The position numbers and the translations under genes are program-made. This document shows positions 55,103-64,000 of a DNA stretch of 64,000 nt, piece after piece. Source of the DNA: Parapedobacter koreensis (GTDB taxonomy: Bacteria > Bacteroidota > Bacteroidia > Sphingobacteriales > Sphingobacteriaceae); contig NZ_FNZR01000004.1 of the NCBI RefSeq assembly GCF_900109365.1, positions 124,001 to 188,000 of the forward strand. The letters are read 5' to 3'. The number at the start of each line of letters is the position of its first letter. The first letter of the stretch is position 1. The notes beneath the pieces were generated by a model. That model worked only from the letters and a program-made list of their open reading frames with translations, had not been told where the DNA came from and made no database searches.

Positions 55103-55663
55103 ATGGCAACGATGACAATGCTACAGGCACTTTACCAACGTATTTTCCCGATAGTGGCCCGTGACGTGGCCAAAAGGGGAGGCACGTTTGAAGAAGCGAA
55201 AGATGTTTTCCATGACGCATTATTGGTTTACTATGAAAAAACACATGATAAGCGGCTGACTTTACGGCATGGCGAAGCGGCTTACATTTGTGGGATAGCA
55301 CGGCACCTGTGGACTAAGCGGTATCGGGAAAACCAACGGTATGCATCACTTGATCAATTGATAGGTAGCTTTGAAGGCGATGACGATTCCGGTATGGACT
55401 GGGTGGATGAGGCAACACAGGATGTACAAGGCAGCGTACCAACAAGTGATAAACGTGTTCTCCGGCTATTGCAAGTGGCAGGCCAAAAGTGCATGGAAGT
55501 ACTCGTTGCTTTTTATTATGAAAAACTCGACATGGAAGCGGTGGCCCGCCGTTTTGGCTTCTCGGGCACACGCTCGGCAACTGTACAGAAATTCAAGTGC
55601 CTGCAAAAGATAAAACAGGTGGTCAAAGTAAAATCGCTGCGCTATGAAGACTTCGTTGGATGA
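55103..55663 (+). CDS. Divergent sigma-70-like (ECF) factor
   Basis: 186 residues. A sigma region 2 is visible in IFPIVARDVAKRGGTFEEAKDVFHDALLVYYEKT, and a region-4-like helix-turn-helix in LVAFYYEKLDMEAVARRFGFSGTRSATVQKFKCLQKI. Between them lies an acidic linker rather than the usual short loop. This is one of the more unusual ECF factors in the window and could control the two genes that follow (a small protein and a ClpP). Confidence 0.75.
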   Translation: MATMTMLQALYQRIFPIVARDVAKRGGTFEEAKDVFHDALLVYYEKTHDKRLTLRHGEAAYICGIARHLWTKRYRENQRYASLDQLIGSFEGDDDSGMDWVDEATQDVQGSVPTSDKRVLRLLQVAGQKCMEVLVAFYYEKLDMEAVARRFGFSGTRSATVQKFKCLQKIKQVVKVKSLRYEDFVG

Positions 55664-58365: not shown

Positions 58366-58740
58366 TTATCGCTTAGTTTTAGAATCTGCCTCGATTTTTT
58401 CTTCTAACGTCTTAATGTATTTTTCCTGGATTTTCACCAACTTCTGGAGGGATTCCAAAGTAAGGTCTTCGCTTTGGTCTACACGCTGGTAAACTTCACT
58501 CGAATCGGTTGCCACAGCGTAAGAAGAAGGCGGTGTTATTTCAAGGTCTTTTTCGACCAAATCGCTAAGATCGATGTGAAATAAATTCACAATCCGTACC
58601 AATACATCCAGCTTTGGAATTGATCCCCGTTCGTAGGAAGCTACATTGTCACGGGACACATTAAGTAGCTTAGCTAAATCATGTTGGCCTAATTTGCGCT
58701 CCTCCCGAAGGAATTTTATATTTTTTGAAAAATACATCAT
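58366..58740 (-). CDS. XRE family transcriptional regulator with C-terminal coiled coil
   Basis: 124 residues. N-terminal HTH_3 domain (NIKFLREERKLGQHDLAKLLNVSRDNVASYERG...), residues about 5-60, followed by an acidic linker and a coiled-coil tail (LESLQKLVKIQEKYIKTLEEKI). It starts within an inverted repeat (TTGTGA/TCACAA) between it and the divergent operon, a natural site for self-control and for control of the HTH/sigma/dCas12f genes. Confidence 0.9.
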   Translation of the reverse strand: MMYFSKNIKFLREERKLGQHDLAKLLNVSRDNVASYERGSIPKLDVLVRIVNLFHIDLSDLVEKDLEITPPSSYAVATDSSEVYQRVDQSEDLTLESLQKLVKIQEKYIKTLEEKIEADSKTKR

Positions 58741-58821: not shown

Positions 58822-59010
58822 ATGAAGAAAGCAAGGTATCCTGAAAATTTACCAATGAAGCTTGAAATCGTGAAATCCCGACGCACCATCAAGGAGATTG
58901 CCGAGAAAATCGGTGTGAGCCGGGAAGTGCTGACCAATACCGTGAACGGGCATTATAAAGGTATCGAAATCATCAAAAAACTGAAAACCGAACTGAATAT
59001 TATCGACTGA
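58822..59010 (+). CDS. Small helix-turn-helix protein, first gene of the sigma/dCas12f operon
   Basis: 62 residues. Helices in PMKLEIVKSRRTIKEIAEKIGVSREVLTNTVNGHYKGIEI form an XRE/Cro-like DNA-binding motif (RRTIKEIAEKIGVSREVLTN). No room for another domain. It is the first rightward gene of the operon, 21 bp before the sigma-like gene, so it is likely a local regulator of the operon or a DNA-binding partner of the system. Confidence 0.75.
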   Translation: MKKARYPENLPMKLEIVKSRRTIKEIAEKIGVSREVLTNTVNGHYKGIEIIKKLKTELNIID

Positions 59011-59031
59011 CAACTACCTACAACTGCGCAT

Positions 59032-59850
59032 ATGTCTACAGCTCCCTATCGAACAAAGAAAAACATCGAAAAGGCCTTTCTGCGCTTCAAAGCGGACGAA
59101 GAATCCGGACTGAATTATTTCTACCACGCTTATTATGATTATTACGCATGGCGGGCCTACCGCTTCGTGAAGGACGATGTGGTGGGTCATGCTATTGCCC
59201 AGGAGGCTTTCCTTCGGCTGTGGCTTATGCGGGGCGTCATCCGCGATGTGGCGCACCTGCACGAATTCCTTGGCTTGCAGCTCCGGGATGCAGGGATGGC
59301 TTACTTCCGAAAGACCGTCAACCATTTCCACCGGAGCATGCTACGGTTGGATGGCATCGAGGATTTCCAGGAGTTTATGCTGGGCTATGATGTGGAGGAA
59401 GAGCAGGAGGAAGACACGGTCTACCTCGAACAACTGGAAGCGGAAAAGCAACGGCAGTTGGAACAGATCAACCATTTATTGCCCAACCTGACCGACCAGC
59501 AACAGTTGTTTATCCGGCTGTGCCTTCGGTATGGGTTTAATTACGAACGCATTGCTCATCACCTCGGCGGCATATCCGACTATGAAGTGGCTCAACGTGT
59601 GGAGCAATGCATCACCAATTTGAAAGCTGCACTCTCAGATACGGCCAAGCTGGACAGTGCCACGCGTACGAAGCCGCTCATTGCCGAAGGCATGCTCACC
59701 GAGGAGCAGGCACAGGTGCTGGCGATGCGGTACGACCTGCAATATTCCTTCGAAGAAATTGCGGAAGCACTGCAACTGGACGATGCCAAGGTGAAATCAT
59801 TGTTTGTACAAGCGCATACCGTTATTAAAAAAGGGAAGCAATCGGCCTGA
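59032..59850 (+). CDS. Sigma-70-like factor with two region-4-type domains, partner of dCas12f
   Basis: 272 residues, longer than typical ECF factors (170-190). Sigma region 2 spans about 25-100 (LNYFYHAYYDYYAWRAYRF, then AIAQEAFLRLWLM). A first region 4 lies at about 148-200 (LPNLTDQQQLFIRLCLRYGF, then NYERIAHHLGG). A second region-4-like HTH follows at about 220-268 (LTEEQAQVLAMRYDLQYSFE, then EIAEALQLDDAKVKSLF). The link between regions 2 and 4 is a long acidic stretch (DVEEEQEEDTVYLEQLEAEK). It ends two bases before the Cas12f-like gene. I infer it recruits RNA polymerase where the RNA-guided partner binds; the extra C-terminal domain could contact that partner. Confidence 0.85.
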   Translation: MSTAPYRTKKNIEKAFLRFKADEESGLNYFYHAYYDYYAWRAYRFVKDDVVGHAIAQEAFLRLWLMRGVIRDVAHLHEFLGLQLRDAGMAYFRKTVNHFHRSMLRLDGIEDFQEFMLGYDVEEEQEEDTVYLEQLEAEKQRQLEQINHLLPNLTDQQQLFIRLCLRYGFNYERIAHHLGGISDYEVAQRVEQCITNLKAALSDTAKLDSATRTKPLIAEGMLTEEQAQVLAMRYDLQYSFEEIAEALQLDDAKVKSLFVQAHTVIKKGKQSA

Positions 59851-59852
59851 CC

Positions 59853-60947
59853 ATGGAAAAGAAGACCATCATCCTGACACGGAAAATACAGGTATACGTA
59901 GACTGCGAAGATAAGGAGAAGAAGGACGGGTACTACAAGCAACTGTATGAATGGCAGTTTTTAGCCTTTCAGGCGGCGAATCTGATTTTCACCCACCTGT
60001 ACGTGCAGGATCGGGTGAAAGACCTGATTTACTTCACCGATGAGGTGAAGGTAAAACTGGCCGACCGTGCCAAGGATGACGAGGGCATTTTGAACACCTC
60101 GCGGATGAACACCACTTACCGCGTACTGTCCAGCAAGCTGCTGGGCAAGATGCCCTCGGACATCTTTTCCAACCTGAACAATGCGCTGACGAGCGTCTAC
60201 AATACCGAGCGCAGCGCGTACTGGAAAGGGGAGAAGTCGCTGCGGAATTATAAGCGCAGTATCCCGTTGCCCTTTTCCGGCAAGTCGTTGAAGTTCGTGG
60301 CGGATGAAAAGCACCGGGAGTTCCGGTTTACGTTGTTCAAAATCCCGTTTAAAACCTATCTGGGCAAGGACAAGACAGACAAGCGCGTGCTGCTTCAACG
60401 CAACGTGGCCGGTACGCTGAAACTCTGTGCCAGTTCGCTGAAAATCGATAGGGGCAAGCTGTACCTGCTGGCGGCCTTTGAGATGGAGCGGGACGAGCAC
60501 CTGTTGAAAGACACCGTAATCGCCGAGGCTTCGCTCTCCATCGAACATCCCATCGTGATGAAGGTAGGGAAGGAGCAGTTCCAGATCGGTAACAAAGAGG
60601 AATTCCTGCACCGTCGACTGGCCATACAGGCCGCACGGCACCGCTTGCAGCGGGGTTCTACGTACAACCGCCCCGGCAAGGGCCGCCAGCGTAAGCTGAA
60701 AAGTTTGGGGGATTGGGACGCGAAGGAAAAGCGGTATGTGGATAATCGGCTGCATTTGTACAGCAGGCGGCTGATTGACCTGTGCGTGAAATCCGAGGCG
60801 GGCACACTGCTCTTGGTAAACCAGCAGCAGAAGGAAGAGGTGGCCAAGGAAGAGGAGTTTTTGCTCCGCAATTGGAGCTATTACGGATTGAAGGAGAAGA
60901 TTGCCTACAAGGCGAAGAAGGCAGGGATTAATGTGATTGAGGAGTAG
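59853..60947 (+). CDS. Nuclease-dead, truncated Cas12f/TnpB-like RNA-guided protein (dCas12f)
   Basis: 364 residues. The N-terminal half resembles the recognition/wedge domain of compact Cas12f proteins. The RuvC region begins near 222: the strand that normally holds the first catalytic Asp (DLGI) reads SLSIEHPIV (Ser at 227 in place of Asp). LHRRLAIQAARHRLQR follows as in Cas12/TnpB. The second catalytic Glu is lost (LLLVNQQQ, Asn323), and the protein ends at AYKAKKAGINVIEE, without the zinc-ribbon and RuvC-III Asp. The fold signature NWSYYGLKEKIAYKAKKAG is otherwise excellent. It should bind guide RNA and DNA without cutting. Two bases separate it from the sigma-like gene upstream, and the array lies downstream. 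Confidence 0.9.
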   Translation: MEKKTIILTRKIQVYVDCEDKEKKDGYYKQLYEWQFLAFQAANLIFTHLYVQDRVKDLIYFTDEVKVKLADRAKDDEGILNTSRMNTTYRVLSSKLLGKMPSDIFSNLNNALTSVYNTERSAYWKGEKSLRNYKRSIPLPFSGKSLKFVADEKHREFRFTLFKIPFKTYLGKDKTDKRVLLQRNVAGTLKLCASSLKIDRGKLYLLAAFEMERDEHLLKDTVIAEASLSIEHPIVMKVGKEQFQIGNKEEFLHRRLAIQAARHRLQRGSTYNRPGKGRQRKLKSLGDWDAKEKRYVDNRLHLYSRRLIDLCVKSEAGTLLLVNQQQKEEVAKEEEFLLRNWSYYGLKEKIAYKAKKAGINVIEE

Positions 60948-61040: not shown

Positions 61041-61238
61041 TCTTAGTAAAGTAAGTGGCTGAGCTATAATGGTGGCTGGCAAGGCGCGCGAAATGAGCAA
61101 AAGCGCAGTTTACTAAAGGTAAATGAGCATTTTGCGAATAAGCGCAACGCAGCCAGGTGCCATTAGAGACAGACACATAGAGGCTGCTTGTACAGCCGCA
61201 GGGTGAGGTCAGGATGACACTCACTGAATACTTTTTTC
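61041..61238 (+). ncRNA. Candidate tracrRNA-like structured RNA with anti-repeat
   Basis: The segment between the dCas12f gene and array folds on paper into a long nested stem: GGCTG (61074-61078) with CAGCC (61150-61154), GCGC (61084-61087) with GCGC (61142-61145), GCAAAA (61097-61102) with TTTTGC (61130-61135), and TTTAC with GTAAA (61109-61113, 61119-61123). A second hairpin, GGCTG/CAGCC, lies at 61182-61197. Then GGTCAGGATGACAC (61207-61220) is an anti-repeat: its GGTCAG and ACAC can pair with CTGACC and GTGT of the array repeats across a small internal loop. A T-run (61232-61237) marks a possible 3' end or a second short contact with GAAAGG of the repeat. Ends are approximate. Confidence 0.65.
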
Positions 61239-61336
61239 TGTTGCGGATTCGCGAATTCGCTTATTTGCTTGTGACGGTGGAACCAATTCAAGGTATAGCA
61301 ACTAACCAAAAAGATTATGAAAGCGAACTCATCTGT

Positions 61337-61943
61337 TGTTTTACAGACTCCAATTTGAAAGTATTTACAACTAGTCCGAGCGCAACATCGTCACGAGCGG
61401 AGGGAGGCTACAGATTCCAATTTGAAAGGTATATACAACACCTTTGTAGGCAGGGCTGGCACTCGCTTAGGTGTCACTGACCCCAATCTGAGAGGGATAT
61501 ATAACTCTAAATGATGAGAACGAAGAAGCTAACAAGTTGTTTCAGCCTCCGCTTTGAAGGTGTATACAAAAAATGATCTGCAAGCTTGTTAATATGTTTA
61601 GGTGTTACAGCCCCAGATTTGAAAGGTATATACAACCGTACTCTACGTAGTAGTCGATATTTGTGTTGTTACTGACCTCAATTTGAAAAATATATACAAC
61701 GTAGGTTGGTTCATAAATAAATGGTACAGACCCCAATTTGAGAGTATATACAACCGATTTTTCATTTGGCAAACGGGGCGGTTCGGTGTTACTGACCCCA
61801 ATTTGAAAGGTATATACAACTCAATCTCGTCTTTTCCCACTCGATTGAATGGTGTTACTGACCCCAATTTGAAAGGTATATACAACTGATAATGAAGCTG
61901 CGTGTCAATCTTCGAGGGTGTTACAGACCCCAATTTGAAAGGT
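61337..61943 (+). CRISPR. CRISPR array block 1, ten repeats
   Basis: Repeats of 36 bp begin GGTGTTACTGACCCC, continue with AATTT, and end GAAAGGTATATACAAC, with spacers of about 30 bp (period 66). Starts: 61337, 61404, 61470, 61536, 61601, 61665, 61722 (shortened), 61785, 61851, 61917. The repeats at 61785 and 61851 are the reference; those nearer dCas12f drift (for example 61536), and a very degenerate unit may lie at 61271-61302. One spacer is only 21 bp (61701-61721). The last repeat is cut after GAAAGGT, exactly where the first TA module begins. The 3' end of the repeat resembles type V-F repeats, so plus-strand transcription is likely. Confidence 0.9.
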
Positions 61944-61965
61944 GTTATTTTGCCTTGACAGTAGT
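61941..61965 (+). repeat. Left boundary motif of TA cassette 1
   Basis: A segment containing GGTG, TTATTTTG and then TTGACAGTAGT. A similar one (GGT, TTATTTTG, TCGACTGTTGT) lies at 62982-63007 before the second cassette. Read together they suggest both modules share a left end. Confidence 0.4.
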
Positions 61966-62064: not shown

Positions 62065-62265
62065 ATGCAAACAATACTTGTTGAGTTAAAAAACCAAAAG
62101 GCCTACCGGCTCCTCAAAGAATTGGAGGATTTGCAGTTAATACGCCTTGTAAAAGTACCGACTAAATTGTCGGCTTTGCGCAAGCAAGTAAAGACCCCAA
62201 TGGCCGAAACTGAAATTGACAAACAATTAACTGAATTGCGTAGTGAATGGCAGCGGGATATCTGA
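62065..62265 (+). CDS. Antitoxin of a VapBC-type module, embedded in the array
   Basis: 66 residues. Starts MQTILVELKNQKAYRLLKELEDLQLIRLVK, a form common to small Bacteroidota antitoxins, followed by a charged C-terminal toxin-binding tail (MAETEIDKQLTELRSEWQRDI). The gene overlaps the toxin gene by 19 bp, the usual sign of a toxin-antitoxin pair. It has its own promoter, so it does not depend on array transcription. The DNA-binding domain is not recognised by name. Confidence 0.82.
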   Translation: MQTILVELKNQKAYRLLKELEDLQLIRLVKVPTKLSALRKQVKTPMAETEIDKQLTELRSEWQRDI

Positions 62266-62642
62266 TTGATACCTCTGCGGTAATCAAATACCTAAACGGA
62301 ACTTTTCCAGAAACGGCGTTAAGGTTCCTAGATGGTGTTGTAGATGATGAGAGCTGTATTTCTTTTGTTTCGGAGATAGAACTTCAAGTGTGGACACCCC
62401 AAAACTCCGAAGACCTGTTAATCTACCAGCAATTTGTTGCTAATTCTGCTATTATTGGAGTAGATGAATATATTATTAACGAGACGGTTAGGATTCGGAA
62501 AATGCATAAGATCAAATTGCCTGACGCGCTTATTGCTGCTACGGCCATTGTCAATAACTTGACATTGATTGCAGACAATGACAAAGATTTCCTCAAGGTT
62601 TCGGGCCTTCGATATAGTAACCCGAAAAACCGCCAAACATAG
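62247..62642 (+). CDS. vapC: PIN domain toxin (VapC-like)
   Basis: 131 residues. PIN-domain acidic residues: Asp8 in YLIDTSAVIKYL, Glu43 in VSEIELQVW, Asp93 in KLPDALIAATA and Asp110/112 in IADNDKDF. The set is complete, so it is probably an active ribonuclease that is blocked by its antitoxin. It starts within the antitoxin gene at ATG 62247. The module lies between two blocks of CRISPR repeats. Confidence 0.92.
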   Translation: MAAGYLIDTSAVIKYLNGTFPETALRFLDGVVDDESCISFVSEIELQVWTPQNSEDLLIYQQFVANSAIIGVDEYIINETVRIRKMHKIKLPDALIAATAIVNNLTLIADNDKDFLKVSGLRYSNPKNRQT

Positions 62643-62718
62643 TTAATGCAAACATAATCCCAAGAAGTTAGTTTTACGATTGCACGGATTGCCAACTGCT
62701 CTCACCTGAGACGAAATC

Positions 62719-62951
62719 TTTTACCAAACTGAACAGTTGAAGGTATATACAACAACATGAAGTCTTCGGGAAAGCAGTCGATTCTGTTAGCGCCCCCCAA
62801 TTTGAAAGGTATATACAACTAAAGTATTCCTTATCATTGACAGCTAGGCGGTGTTACTAACCCCAATTTGAAAGGTATATACAACCGGAGACCGTGCCGC
62901 CTTCCGGTGCGTGGAGTTGTCACAGACCCCAATTTGGAAGGTATATACAAT
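62719..62951 (+). CRISPR. CRISPR array block 2, four repeats
   Basis: Repeats end at 62753, 62819, 62885 and 62951, a strict 66-bp period. The first keeps only its 3' part (TTGAAGGTATATACAAC), the mirror case of the truncated last repeat in block 1. The others are complete with small changes (for example GCGCCCCCC in place of ACTGACCCC at 62791-62797). Three spacers of 30 bp: 62754-62783, 62820-62849, 62886-62915. Confidence 0.9.
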
Positions 62952-62981
62952 TATCTTTGCATATGTAATATTCGCAAGGGA

Positions 62982-63071: not shown

Positions 63072-63305
63072 ATGAAAACGATAGCGATTAATGTACCGCC
63101 AAATTTGGCCGATGCATTTGAAAAAGCTGACACCGAAAGAAAGAGAACAGCGGAGCTTTACATAAATGCTTGGCTTGCCGATTTTTTCAGCAACCAATCA
63201 GCTAACGAGCGGTTGTTTGATATCATGAAGAAGGCAACAGCCGAGGCGAAGGCGAAGGGTTTCAACGAAGCTGAGCTACAGGAACTCCTGAAATCAGATG
63301 AATAA
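63072..63305 (+). CDS. Antitoxin of the second TA module
   Basis: 77 residues from the ATG at 63072 (MKTIAINVPPNLADAFEKAD), preceded by an AAGGAAG stretch. The N terminus fits a ribbon-helix-helix-like protein (KTIAINVPPNLADAFE..., then AELYINAWLADFF), and the acidic C terminus (FNEAELQELLKSDE) probably wraps the toxin. It overlaps the PIN toxin gene by 8 bp. Confidence 0.82.
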   Translation: MKTIAINVPPNLADAFEKADTERKRTAELYINAWLADFFSNQSANERLFDIMKKATAEAKAKGFNEAELQELLKSDE

Positions 63306-63705
63306 ATTTTTTGTGTTTGACACCAACACGCTTATCAGCGCGGTGTTTAACGAACACTCCCAATCTGGATTGGCTTTGAAGAAGGCAAGGACGATTGGAA
63401 CACTCTTGGTATCAGACGAAATCATTTCAGAGTATCTGATTGTTTTCGCTCGTGATAAGTTCAACAAGTGGCTGTCTTTGGAGACCCGCATTGAGTTTAT
63501 TGAAAATATTATAGCCAATGCGTTGCCTATTCAAATAGTCGAACGGATACAAGAATGCCGAGACCCGAAAGATGATAAGTACTTGTCTTTGGCGGTTTCT
63601 GCACAAGCCGATGCAATTATAACCGGCGATGATGATTTGTTGGTTATGAACCCTTTTAGACAAATTCCGATCCTAAATTCTTCCGATTTCTTGTCCCTTG
63701 GATAG
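63298..63705 (+). CDS. PIN domain toxin, COG1569-like
   Basis: 135 residues. Acidic PIN residues: Asp8 in FVFDTNTLISAVF, Glu45 in DEIISEYLIVF, Asp92/93 in CRDPKDDKYLSLAV and Asp111-113 in ITGDDDLLVM. It belongs to a different branch of the PIN family than the first module, so the two cassettes are not simple duplicates. All active-site positions are filled, so the toxin is likely functional and held by its antitoxin. Confidence 0.92.
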   Translation: MNKFFVFDTNTLISAVFNEHSQSGLALKKARTIGTLLVSDEIISEYLIVFARDKFNKWLSLETRIEFIENIIANALPIQIVERIQECRDPKDDKYLSLAVSAQADAIITGDDDLLVMNPFRQIPILNSSDFLSLG

Positions 63706-63941: not shown

Positions 63942-64000
63942 ATGACACAGGTGACCTTACATATTGACAGCAAAAAAAAGTGGGCAGCCATAAAGACTAT
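63942..64000 (+). CDS. Start of a third probable antitoxin gene (partial)
   Basis: Only 19 residues are visible (MTQVTLHIDSKKKWAAIKT); the gene runs off the right edge. The start resembles small antitoxins such as that of the first module, and the identical promoter spacing suggests the same kind of cassette. Identity needs the sequence to the right. Confidence 0.55.
   Translation, partial: MTQVTLHIDSKKKWAAIKT

What the first reader, a model, noticed from the sequence alone, without database searches (positions are those of the whole stretch)
58822..60947. Operon of HTH, double-region-4 sigma factor and nuclease-dead Cas12f-like protein
The 364-residue protein at 59853-60947 has clear Cas12/TnpB RuvC signatures (NWSYYGLKEKIAYKAKKAG, LHRRLAIQAARHRLQR), yet position DLGI reads SLSI (Asp to Ser227), the RuvC-II Glu is Asn323, and RuvC-III with its zinc ribbon is missing. 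It starts two bases after a sigma-70-like gene. A CRISPR array and candidate tracrRNA follow. Known: TldR and dCas12 proteins lost cleavage and act as RNA-guided regulators; I recall recent work on dCas12f with ECF sigma factors in Bacteroidota. Inference: the protein binds guided DNA and the sigma factor brings RNA polymerase there, so guide RNAs would define promoters.
Basis: partly seen in the sequence, partly recalled or inferred. Interest (0 to 1): 0.97.

Follow-up and report, generated by a model that had tools for sequence, protein, structure and literature searches.

The report
RNA-guided sigma factor with guide arrays
A soil bacterium carries a dead CRISPR enzyme paired with a sigma factor, so that short guide RNAs probably choose where transcription starts; some guides match DNA upstream of nutrient-uptake operons, and toxin-antitoxin genes sit between the guide arrays.

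Summary
An ECF sigma gene (59032-59850) is followed after 2 bp by a 364-aa Cas12f relative (59853-60947) with the RuvC-I Asp replaced (S227), no recognisable RuvC-II Glu, and an end before RuvC-III. Both proteins match a solved complex along their length: PDB 9n9q, 'Nuclease-deactivated Cas12f' (E 2e-156) with 'RpoE' (E 2e-52). This is a member of the known dCas12f-sigmaE RNA-guided transcription family, not a new kind. 98 of 105 distinct loci surveyed keep the pair adjacent.

Added here: (1) In Parapedobacter, 36+30-nt arrays follow a conserved scaffold RNA. (2) 25 of 89 unique spacers match fetched chromosomal regions at >=24/30 (controls 0 of 89). Of 30 target sites, 25 lie within 3 kb upstream of a TonB/TlpA (SusC-type) gene, all 25 on its strand; 26 of 30 have pyrimidines at -3/-2, a Cas12-like 5' PAM. 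(3) Type II toxin-antitoxin genes lie between or right after array blocks in 5 of 7 Parapedobacter loci. (4) Only 9 of 81 spacers searched have such a site in their own genome.

Expression, guide processing and start sites are untested. The 62-aa HTH gene is lineage-specific, not core.

The parts
58366..58740 (-). Divergent Cro/C1-type HTH regulator, probable repressor of the operon (inferred)
   Evidence: Pfam HTH_3 E 5.9e-11; close relative in the same 5 Parapedobacter loci as the small HTH gene; 3 further weak matches, two of them one locus seen twice
58822..59010 (+). 62-aa HTH protein, lineage-specific accessory
   Evidence: Weak HTH_3 match below cut-off; found in 5 of 107 loci entries
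59032..59850 (+). ECF sigma factor (sigmaE/RpoE-like) with sigma2 and two region-4 stretches
   Evidence: TIGR02937 E 5.9e-14, TIGR02985; profile hits PDB 9n9q chain C 'RpoE' E 1.6e-52 over 16-269
59853..60947 (+). Nuclease-dead Cas12f (dCas12f), 364 aa
   Evidence: PADLOC Cas12f E 9.5e-55; PDB 9n9c/9n9m/9n9o/9n9q 'Nuclease-deactivated Cas12f' E 2.2e-156 over 1-363
61180..61237 (+). Guide-RNA scaffold (tracr-like): two hairpins and a GAATACTTTTTT tail that may pair with the repeat (pairing inferred)
   Evidence: nhmmer model from 58 seeds hits 107 of 107 loci entries at E<=0.1, 98 at E<1e-4; 0 of 107 on reversed or complementary sequence; 128 unique copies give two stems with changes on both sides of some pairs
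61336..61952 (+). Array block 1: degenerate 36-nt repeats (window consensus GGTGTTACTGACCCCAATTTGAAAGGTATATACAAC) with about 30-nt spacers; the last repeat is truncated
61571..61600 (+). Spacer matching G001 (P. luteus) C14 28/30, antisense in a small HTH-like gene; no TonB gene follows there
61755..61784 (+). Spacer matching own genome C12:122496 25/30; protospacer starts 70 bp before the ATG of a TlpA-like + TonB operon, same strand, TTTCA upstream
61887..61916 (+). Spacer matching own genome C11:232745 29/30, TTTTA upstream; no TonB gene in the fetched region
62065..62642 (+). Toxin-antitoxin module 1: 66-aa putative antitoxin and PIN (VapC-like) toxin
   Evidence: PIN E 7.7e-13; the antitoxin is inferred from position
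62718..62981 (+). Array block 2 (4 repeats)
63072..63705 (+). Toxin-antitoxin module 2: putative antitoxin and PIN_3 toxin
   Evidence: PIN_3 E 4e-17; antitoxin homologue in L014
63744..63875 (+). Array block 3 (2 repeats)
63942..64000 (+). Start of toxin-antitoxin module 3 (weak DUF2683-like antitoxin, weak ParE-like toxin), running past the window; a second scaffold copy follows at about 64507 in the host contig
   Evidence: ParE E 0.0028, below the Pfam cut-off

Best explanation
This is a dCas12f-sigmaE RNA-guided transcription system. The scaffold RNA and a repeat-spacer unit form a guide. dCas12f, which cannot cut, binds DNA matching the spacer next to a pyrimidine-rich 5' PAM, roughly (T)TYYN. 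The co-encoded ECF sigma bound to it brings RNA polymerase, and transcription starts downstream of the R-loop in the spacer's direction. The guides with detectable targets mostly point into TonB/SusC-type uptake operons, some about 60 bp from the start codon, others up to 2.7 kb upstream and antisense through neighbouring genes, several of them HTH regulators. Shown here: gene identity, conserved pair, conserved RNA, target sites, PAM, orientation. Inferred: binding, activation, start sites. The toxin-antitoxin modules between array blocks probably help keep the repetitive arrays from being lost (inferred).
For: Full-length matches of both proteins to the solved complex 9n9q. Sigma gene directly upstream of dCas12f in 98 of 105 distinct loci (100 of 107 entries; two loci entered twice). 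Scaffold found in 107 of 107 entries, 0 of 107 on reversed or complementary sequence, with two stems. 25 of 89 unique spacers have a >=24/30 match in 20 fetched regions; reversed and shuffled spacers have 0 of 89. Of 30 target sites, 25 in 15 loci have a TonB/TlpA gene within 3 kb downstream on the same strand, and no site has one within 3 kb in any other geometry (Pfam checks in two of these loci). Pyrimidine at -3 in 29 of 30, T at -4 in 23 of 30, YY at -3/-2 in 26 of 30, TYY in 20, TTYY in 14; at one site per spacer, Y at -3 in 24 of 24. No significant motif downstream of the target, as expected if no promoter motif is needed.
Against: Of 30 sites, 5 have no TonB/TlpA gene within 3 kb: in 3 the nearest one on the same strand is at 4.1, 5.8 and 8.2 kb, and 2 have none in the fetched region (L116 in metE, L120). 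The later hit L359 has an HTH-like gene but no TonB gene downstream. Only 9 of 81 spacers searched genome-wide, 2 of 15 in the window, have a >=24/30 own-genome site, and one of those two has no TonB gene. Only 20 of 30 sites show TYY. Distances vary widely. In two relatives a gene is split over two frames: dCas12f in L010, sigma in L006. Predicted structures were poor (mean pLDDT 49 and 52). No expression data. Sites per locus and per spacer are not independent.
Confidence: 0.87

Rival explanations
1. Guided repressor: dCas12f with guides blocks transcription at TonB loci (like TldR), and the sigma factor acts elsewhere.
For: Several sites lie close to start codons or inside neighbouring HTH-like genes; TldR proteins are known guided regulators (recalled; one TldR paper seen only as a search listing with the start of its abstract).
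Against: Sigma partner adjacent in 98 of 105 distinct loci; solved complex with RpoE; strict co-orientation with the TonB/TlpA gene, 25 of 25 within 3 kb, is not needed for blocking.
Confidence: 0.07
2. Decaying defence system: a dead type V-F locus whose spacers are relics of immunity against mobile DNA carrying TonB loci.
For: Degenerate repeats; no cas1/cas2 recognised by eye among the ORFs next to the array (no search made); 16 of the 25 matching spacers match only other species at >=24/30 in the fetched regions; dCas12f in L010 and sigma in L006 are split over two frames; several targets sit on short contigs.
Against: By my count's rows, 103 of 118 run over nearly the whole profile without a stop (15 are partial or carry stops); the family is widespread (97 of 400 genomes); in L009 the ATACAA[CT] core persists while the rest of the repeat is lost (9 in 1.2 kb against 1 in 11.8 kb); no phage or plasmid match for block 1.
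Confidence: 0.03
3. The co-orientation reflects how spacers are captured (for example from transcripts or by a strand-biased process), not how they act.
For: Sites reach 2.7 kb upstream, further than a simple promoter would need; the PAM is the kind seen in spacer capture.
Against: Does not explain why 25 of 30 sites lie upstream of TonB/TlpA genes and none in another geometry within 3 kb; the Pedobacter loci L011-L013 use single guides without arrays.
Confidence: 0.1

Closest known systems
dCas12f-sigmaE RNA-guided transcription complex (PDB 9n9c, 9n9m, 9n9o, 9n9q)
   Same: Both proteins match along their length, including the missing RuvC-III and the long sigma
   Different: Here with multi-spacer arrays that have toxin-antitoxin modules among them and a pyrimidine-rich 5' PAM; I recall a minimal 5'-G motif for the published systems (memory, not checked). 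The primary paper was not found in the library, so whether these features are already described is unknown.
Active Cas12f (type V-F; e.g. 9nzo, 7c7l)
   Same: Shared Cas12f core; scaffold + repeat + spacer guide and 5' T-rich PAM (the comparison is recalled)
   Different: Catalytic residues replaced, RuvC-III and zinc ribbon absent; no adaptation genes recognised nearby by eye
TldR (TnpB-like nuclease-dead RNA-guided regulators)
   Same: Nuclease-dead, RNA-guided control of host genes (recalled)
   Different: TldR derives from TnpB, uses single guides and has no sigma partner (recalled)

Membership tests
dCas12f-sigmaE RNA-guided transcription systems | Cas12f homologue with lost RuvC catalytic residues | tested here: met
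   S227 in place of the Asp, no recognisable RuvC-II Glu, no RuvC-III
dCas12f-sigmaE RNA-guided transcription systems | Adjacent, co-directional ECF sigma homologous to the solved partner | tested here: met
   2-bp gap; 9n9q RpoE E 1.6e-52; 98 of 105 distinct loci
dCas12f-sigmaE RNA-guided transcription systems | Linked guide RNA with conserved structured scaffold | tested here: met
   107 of 107 entries, controls 0 of 107, two stems; expression not tested
dCas12f-sigmaE RNA-guided transcription systems | Guides match chromosomal sites upstream of genes, co-oriented | tested here: met
   25 of 30 sites within 3 kb upstream of TonB/TlpA genes, 25 of 25 co-oriented, 5 of 30 without; most spacers have no detected site
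dCas12f-sigmaE RNA-guided transcription systems | Guide-dependent RNA polymerase recruitment and start sites set by R-loop distance | not testable with these tools
   Needs bench work; no downstream motif found
Type V-F CRISPR-Cas immunity | Active RuvC nuclease | tested here: not met
Type V-F CRISPR-Cas immunity | Repeat-spacer array with tracr-like RNA and 5' PAM | tested here: met
Type V-F CRISPR-Cas immunity | Adaptation genes (cas1/cas2) | not tested
   None recognised by eye among ORFs beside the array; no family search was made and the rest of the genome was not searched

The most novel reading that the evidence does not exclude
Parapedobacter keeps an exchangeable library of promoter-defining guides for a pool of TonB uptake operons that move between species: arrays built as tandem [scaffold - array - toxin-antitoxin] cassettes, the toxin-antitoxin modules acting as locks, and guides being gained and lost so that incoming uptake operons are switched on by RNA-guided initiation, partly from sites kilobases upstream that also silence the neighbouring HTH gene by antisense transcription.
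Probability: 0.25. Interest if true: 0.88.

Novelty: new variant of a known kind. Interest (0 to 1): 0.62.

Why it matters
Natural guides, targets and a candidate PAM for an RNA-guided transcription system can be read here from genomes alone, with spacers and targets from seven species. This makes the in vivo role testable (which operons, which strand, what distance), raises the question of how guides are acquired, and shows a recurrent association of such arrays with toxin-antitoxin modules.

Tried and rejected
HTH gene as a core component: rejected, 5 of 107 entries. A phage or plasmid source of block 1 spacers: no match (blocks 2 and 3 not searched there). A conserved -10-like motif downstream of targets: the best of 180 tests at one site per spacer has p 0.002, not significant; a T/A excess in the 30-site table weakened when homologous sites were removed. 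Structure prediction with 9-row alignments gave low confidence, so no fold search was run. The Pedobacter guide GGGCTGCTGTNATTCC has few genomic matches and no clear target (three contexts printed). Own-genome SusC loci were fetched but not analysed. Two repeat chains (L197, L244) of the 30 were dropped by eye as other minisatellites. Rows that were partial or carried stops were left out of the 97 fetched loci; the Parapedobacter rows were already in hand. Two of the 107 entries repeat a locus (L173 = L012, L174 = L011). Of the 7 entries without sigma within 400 bp, L191 has one farther upstream and L194 one on the other strand. A weaker match seen (L063, 23/30, no TonB gene seen) was not fetched further and falls below the 24/30 limit. 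The primary paper on the solved complex was not found in the library (listings only); no paper was opened.

Full report
Observation. The window holds, on the + strand, a 62-aa HTH ORF, a 272-aa sigma factor (59032-59850) and a 364-aa Cas12f-like protein (59853-60947), the last two 2 bp apart. Degenerate 36-nt repeats with about 30-nt spacers follow in three blocks. The host is a Parapedobacter relative: the nine dCas12f loci found in the genome collection are six Parapedobacter (86-97% identity) and three Pedobacter (55-58%). The window is G000:C16:124001-188000.

Identity of the proteins. The Cas12f-like protein hits PADLOC Cas12f. A profile of nine sequences hits PDB 9n9c/9n9m/9n9o/9n9q, 'Nuclease-deactivated Cas12f', over 1-363 at 2.2e-156, and active Cas12f chains more weakly. 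Position 227 is Ser (Thr in one relative) where the active chain has the RuvC-I Asp; the RuvC-II region reads LLVNQQQ, with an alignment gap there; the protein ends before RuvC-III. A profile of nine sigma sequences hits one solved sequence at E <= 0.01, 9n9q chain C 'RpoE', E 1.6e-52, over 16-269 of 272. The pair is therefore homologous to a solved dCas12f-sigma complex. AlphaFold models from nine rows were of low confidence and were not used.

Spread. 97 of 400 genomes drawn from the order have dCas12f at E <= 1e-15 (7 of 22 genera). I surveyed 107 loci entries: 97 fetched (rows without stops and near full length) plus 10 earlier; two loci are entered twice, so 105 are distinct. Sigma lies directly upstream in 100 of 107 entries, 98 of 105 distinct loci. 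The 62-aa HTH gene is in 5 of 107. In L010 dCas12f and in L006 sigma are split over two frames in the deposited sequence, either decay or sequence error.

Guide RNA. A scaffold GAGGCTGCTTGTACAGCCGYAGGGTGAG...CTCACTGAATACTTTTTT follows dCas12f at 61180-61237. A model from 58 seeds (from 36 loci) finds it in 107 of 107 entries at E <= 0.1, 98 of them below 1e-4; reversed and complementary sequences give 0 of 107. It lies downstream of dCas12f in 48 entries and only upstream in 59. 128 unique copies support two hairpins with changes on both sides of several pairs (no control alignment). In Pedobacter (L011-L013) there is no array: scaffold, ATACAAC and a single guide, one or two units. In P. tibetensis (L009) the repeats have decayed to an ATACAA[CT] core, 9 in 1.2 kb against 1 in 11.8 kb elsewhere in the locus. 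Periodic repeat chains were found in 30 of 107 entries, of which I discount 2 by eye; arrays upstream of sigma occur in another genus, g2.

Targets. In the host genome, spacer 61887-61916 matches C11:232745 (29/30) and spacer 61755-61784 matches C12:122496 (25/30). Sixty-six spacers of six relatives against seven genomes gave many near-full matches outside arrays. I fetched 20 regions covering the matches with E below 0.01 that I judged to lie outside arrays, and some weaker ones. There, 25 of 89 unique spacers match at >=24/30; reversed or shuffled spacers give 0 of 89. These are 30 distinct sites. In 25 of the 30, in 15 loci, a TonB or TlpA-like gene starts within 3 kb downstream on the same strand; no site has one within 3 kb in another geometry; 5 have none within 3 kb. 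Genes were classed by BLASTP to reference proteins from targeted loci L104, L108 and L114; Pfam confirmed TonB plug, AhpC/TSA (TlpA-like) and SusD in L104 and L108. Three of the five have one at 4.1, 5.8 and 8.2 kb on the same strand; two (L116 in metE, L120) have none in the fetched region. The closest sites start about 62-70 bp before the ATG (L104, L105; L106 and L109 if an internal Met is the start). Others lie antisense in neighbouring genes, several of which read as HTH regulators by eye (Pfam HTH_3 for the one of L114, none for that of L104). Nine spacers have a site in their own genome (window 2, L007 3, L008 1, L014 3) out of 81 searched genome-wide; eight of the nine L009 units were not searched. 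A later hit, spacer 61571-61600 against P. luteus (28/30), has TCCA upstream and lies antisense in a small HTH-like gene, but no TonB gene follows.

PAM. At 30 sites: T at -5 in 19, T at -4 in 23, pyrimidine at -3 in 29 and at -2 in 26, any base at -1; TYY at -4 to -2 in 20, TTYY in 14. At one site per spacer (24), pyrimidine at -3 is 24 of 24 and T at -4 17 of 24. Base composition downstream of the site shows no significant motif at one site per spacer.

Toxin-antitoxin modules. Between blocks lie a PIN module (62065-62642), a PIN_3 module (63072-63705) and a weakly ParE-like module (63942 to about 64451 in the contig), then a second scaffold copy at about 64507. Other toxin families sit between or right after array blocks in L006 (HepT), L007 (PIN; a weak DUF2683 antitoxin with a small downstream ORF), L010 (PIN_3, and a homologue of that antitoxin by eye) and L014 (an antitoxin homologue only, no toxin gene seen), that is in 5 of 7 Parapedobacter loci, not in L008 or L009. 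In these four a new scaffold follows the module, giving [scaffold - array - TA] cassettes; in the window three modules precede the second scaffold. In genus g2, 20 loci were extended, 18 show repeats by a motif scan, and 2 have TA-like ORFs in gaps by eye.

Mechanism. The simplest reading is RNA-guided transcription initiation at TonB/SusC operons. Guided repression, a decaying immune system, or capture bias fit less well but are not excluded. The function of the toxin-antitoxin modules and the way guides are gained are open. Most spacers have no detected own-genome site, and 16 of the 25 matching spacers match only other species in the fetched regions, which suggests turnover of guides and targets; shorter functional matches would have been missed.

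Known or new. The pair belongs to a known kind. I could not check whether the published work describes multi-spacer arrays, toxin-antitoxin modules or this PAM: no paper was found and none was opened. What I recall of it (a minimal 5'-G motif, SusCD targets, start sites set by distance) is from memory.

Noticed in passing
L107 (G003:C34) 91-950: The translated ORFs repeat FNSCMVRLK-like segments, which looks like a separate CRISPR array in a P. composti contig, so other adaptation genes may exist in the genus.
   Followed up: no
window 55103-55663: A further small ORF that reads like an ECF-type sigma factor by eye, followed by a possible anti-sigma ORF.
   Followed up: no
L007 7529-7660 and 10508-10639: Two spacers are repeated between distant array blocks, so arrays can grow or shuffle by recombination.
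   Followed up: partly
G000 whole genome: At least 56 SusC/RagA-type TonB genes pass the family cut-off (56 of 165 candidates scored); which of these are guide-controlled was not analysed.
   Followed up: no
L012 and L013 about 7340, L009 about 7285 and 8560: Single guides of two Pedobacter loci and units of P. tibetensis share a GGGCTGCTGT start right after ACAAC; its target is unclear.
   Followed up: partly
L010 5977-7090 and L006 5143-5995: dCas12f of P. indicus and sigma of P. defluvii each read in two overlapping frames in the deposited sequence.
   Followed up: partly
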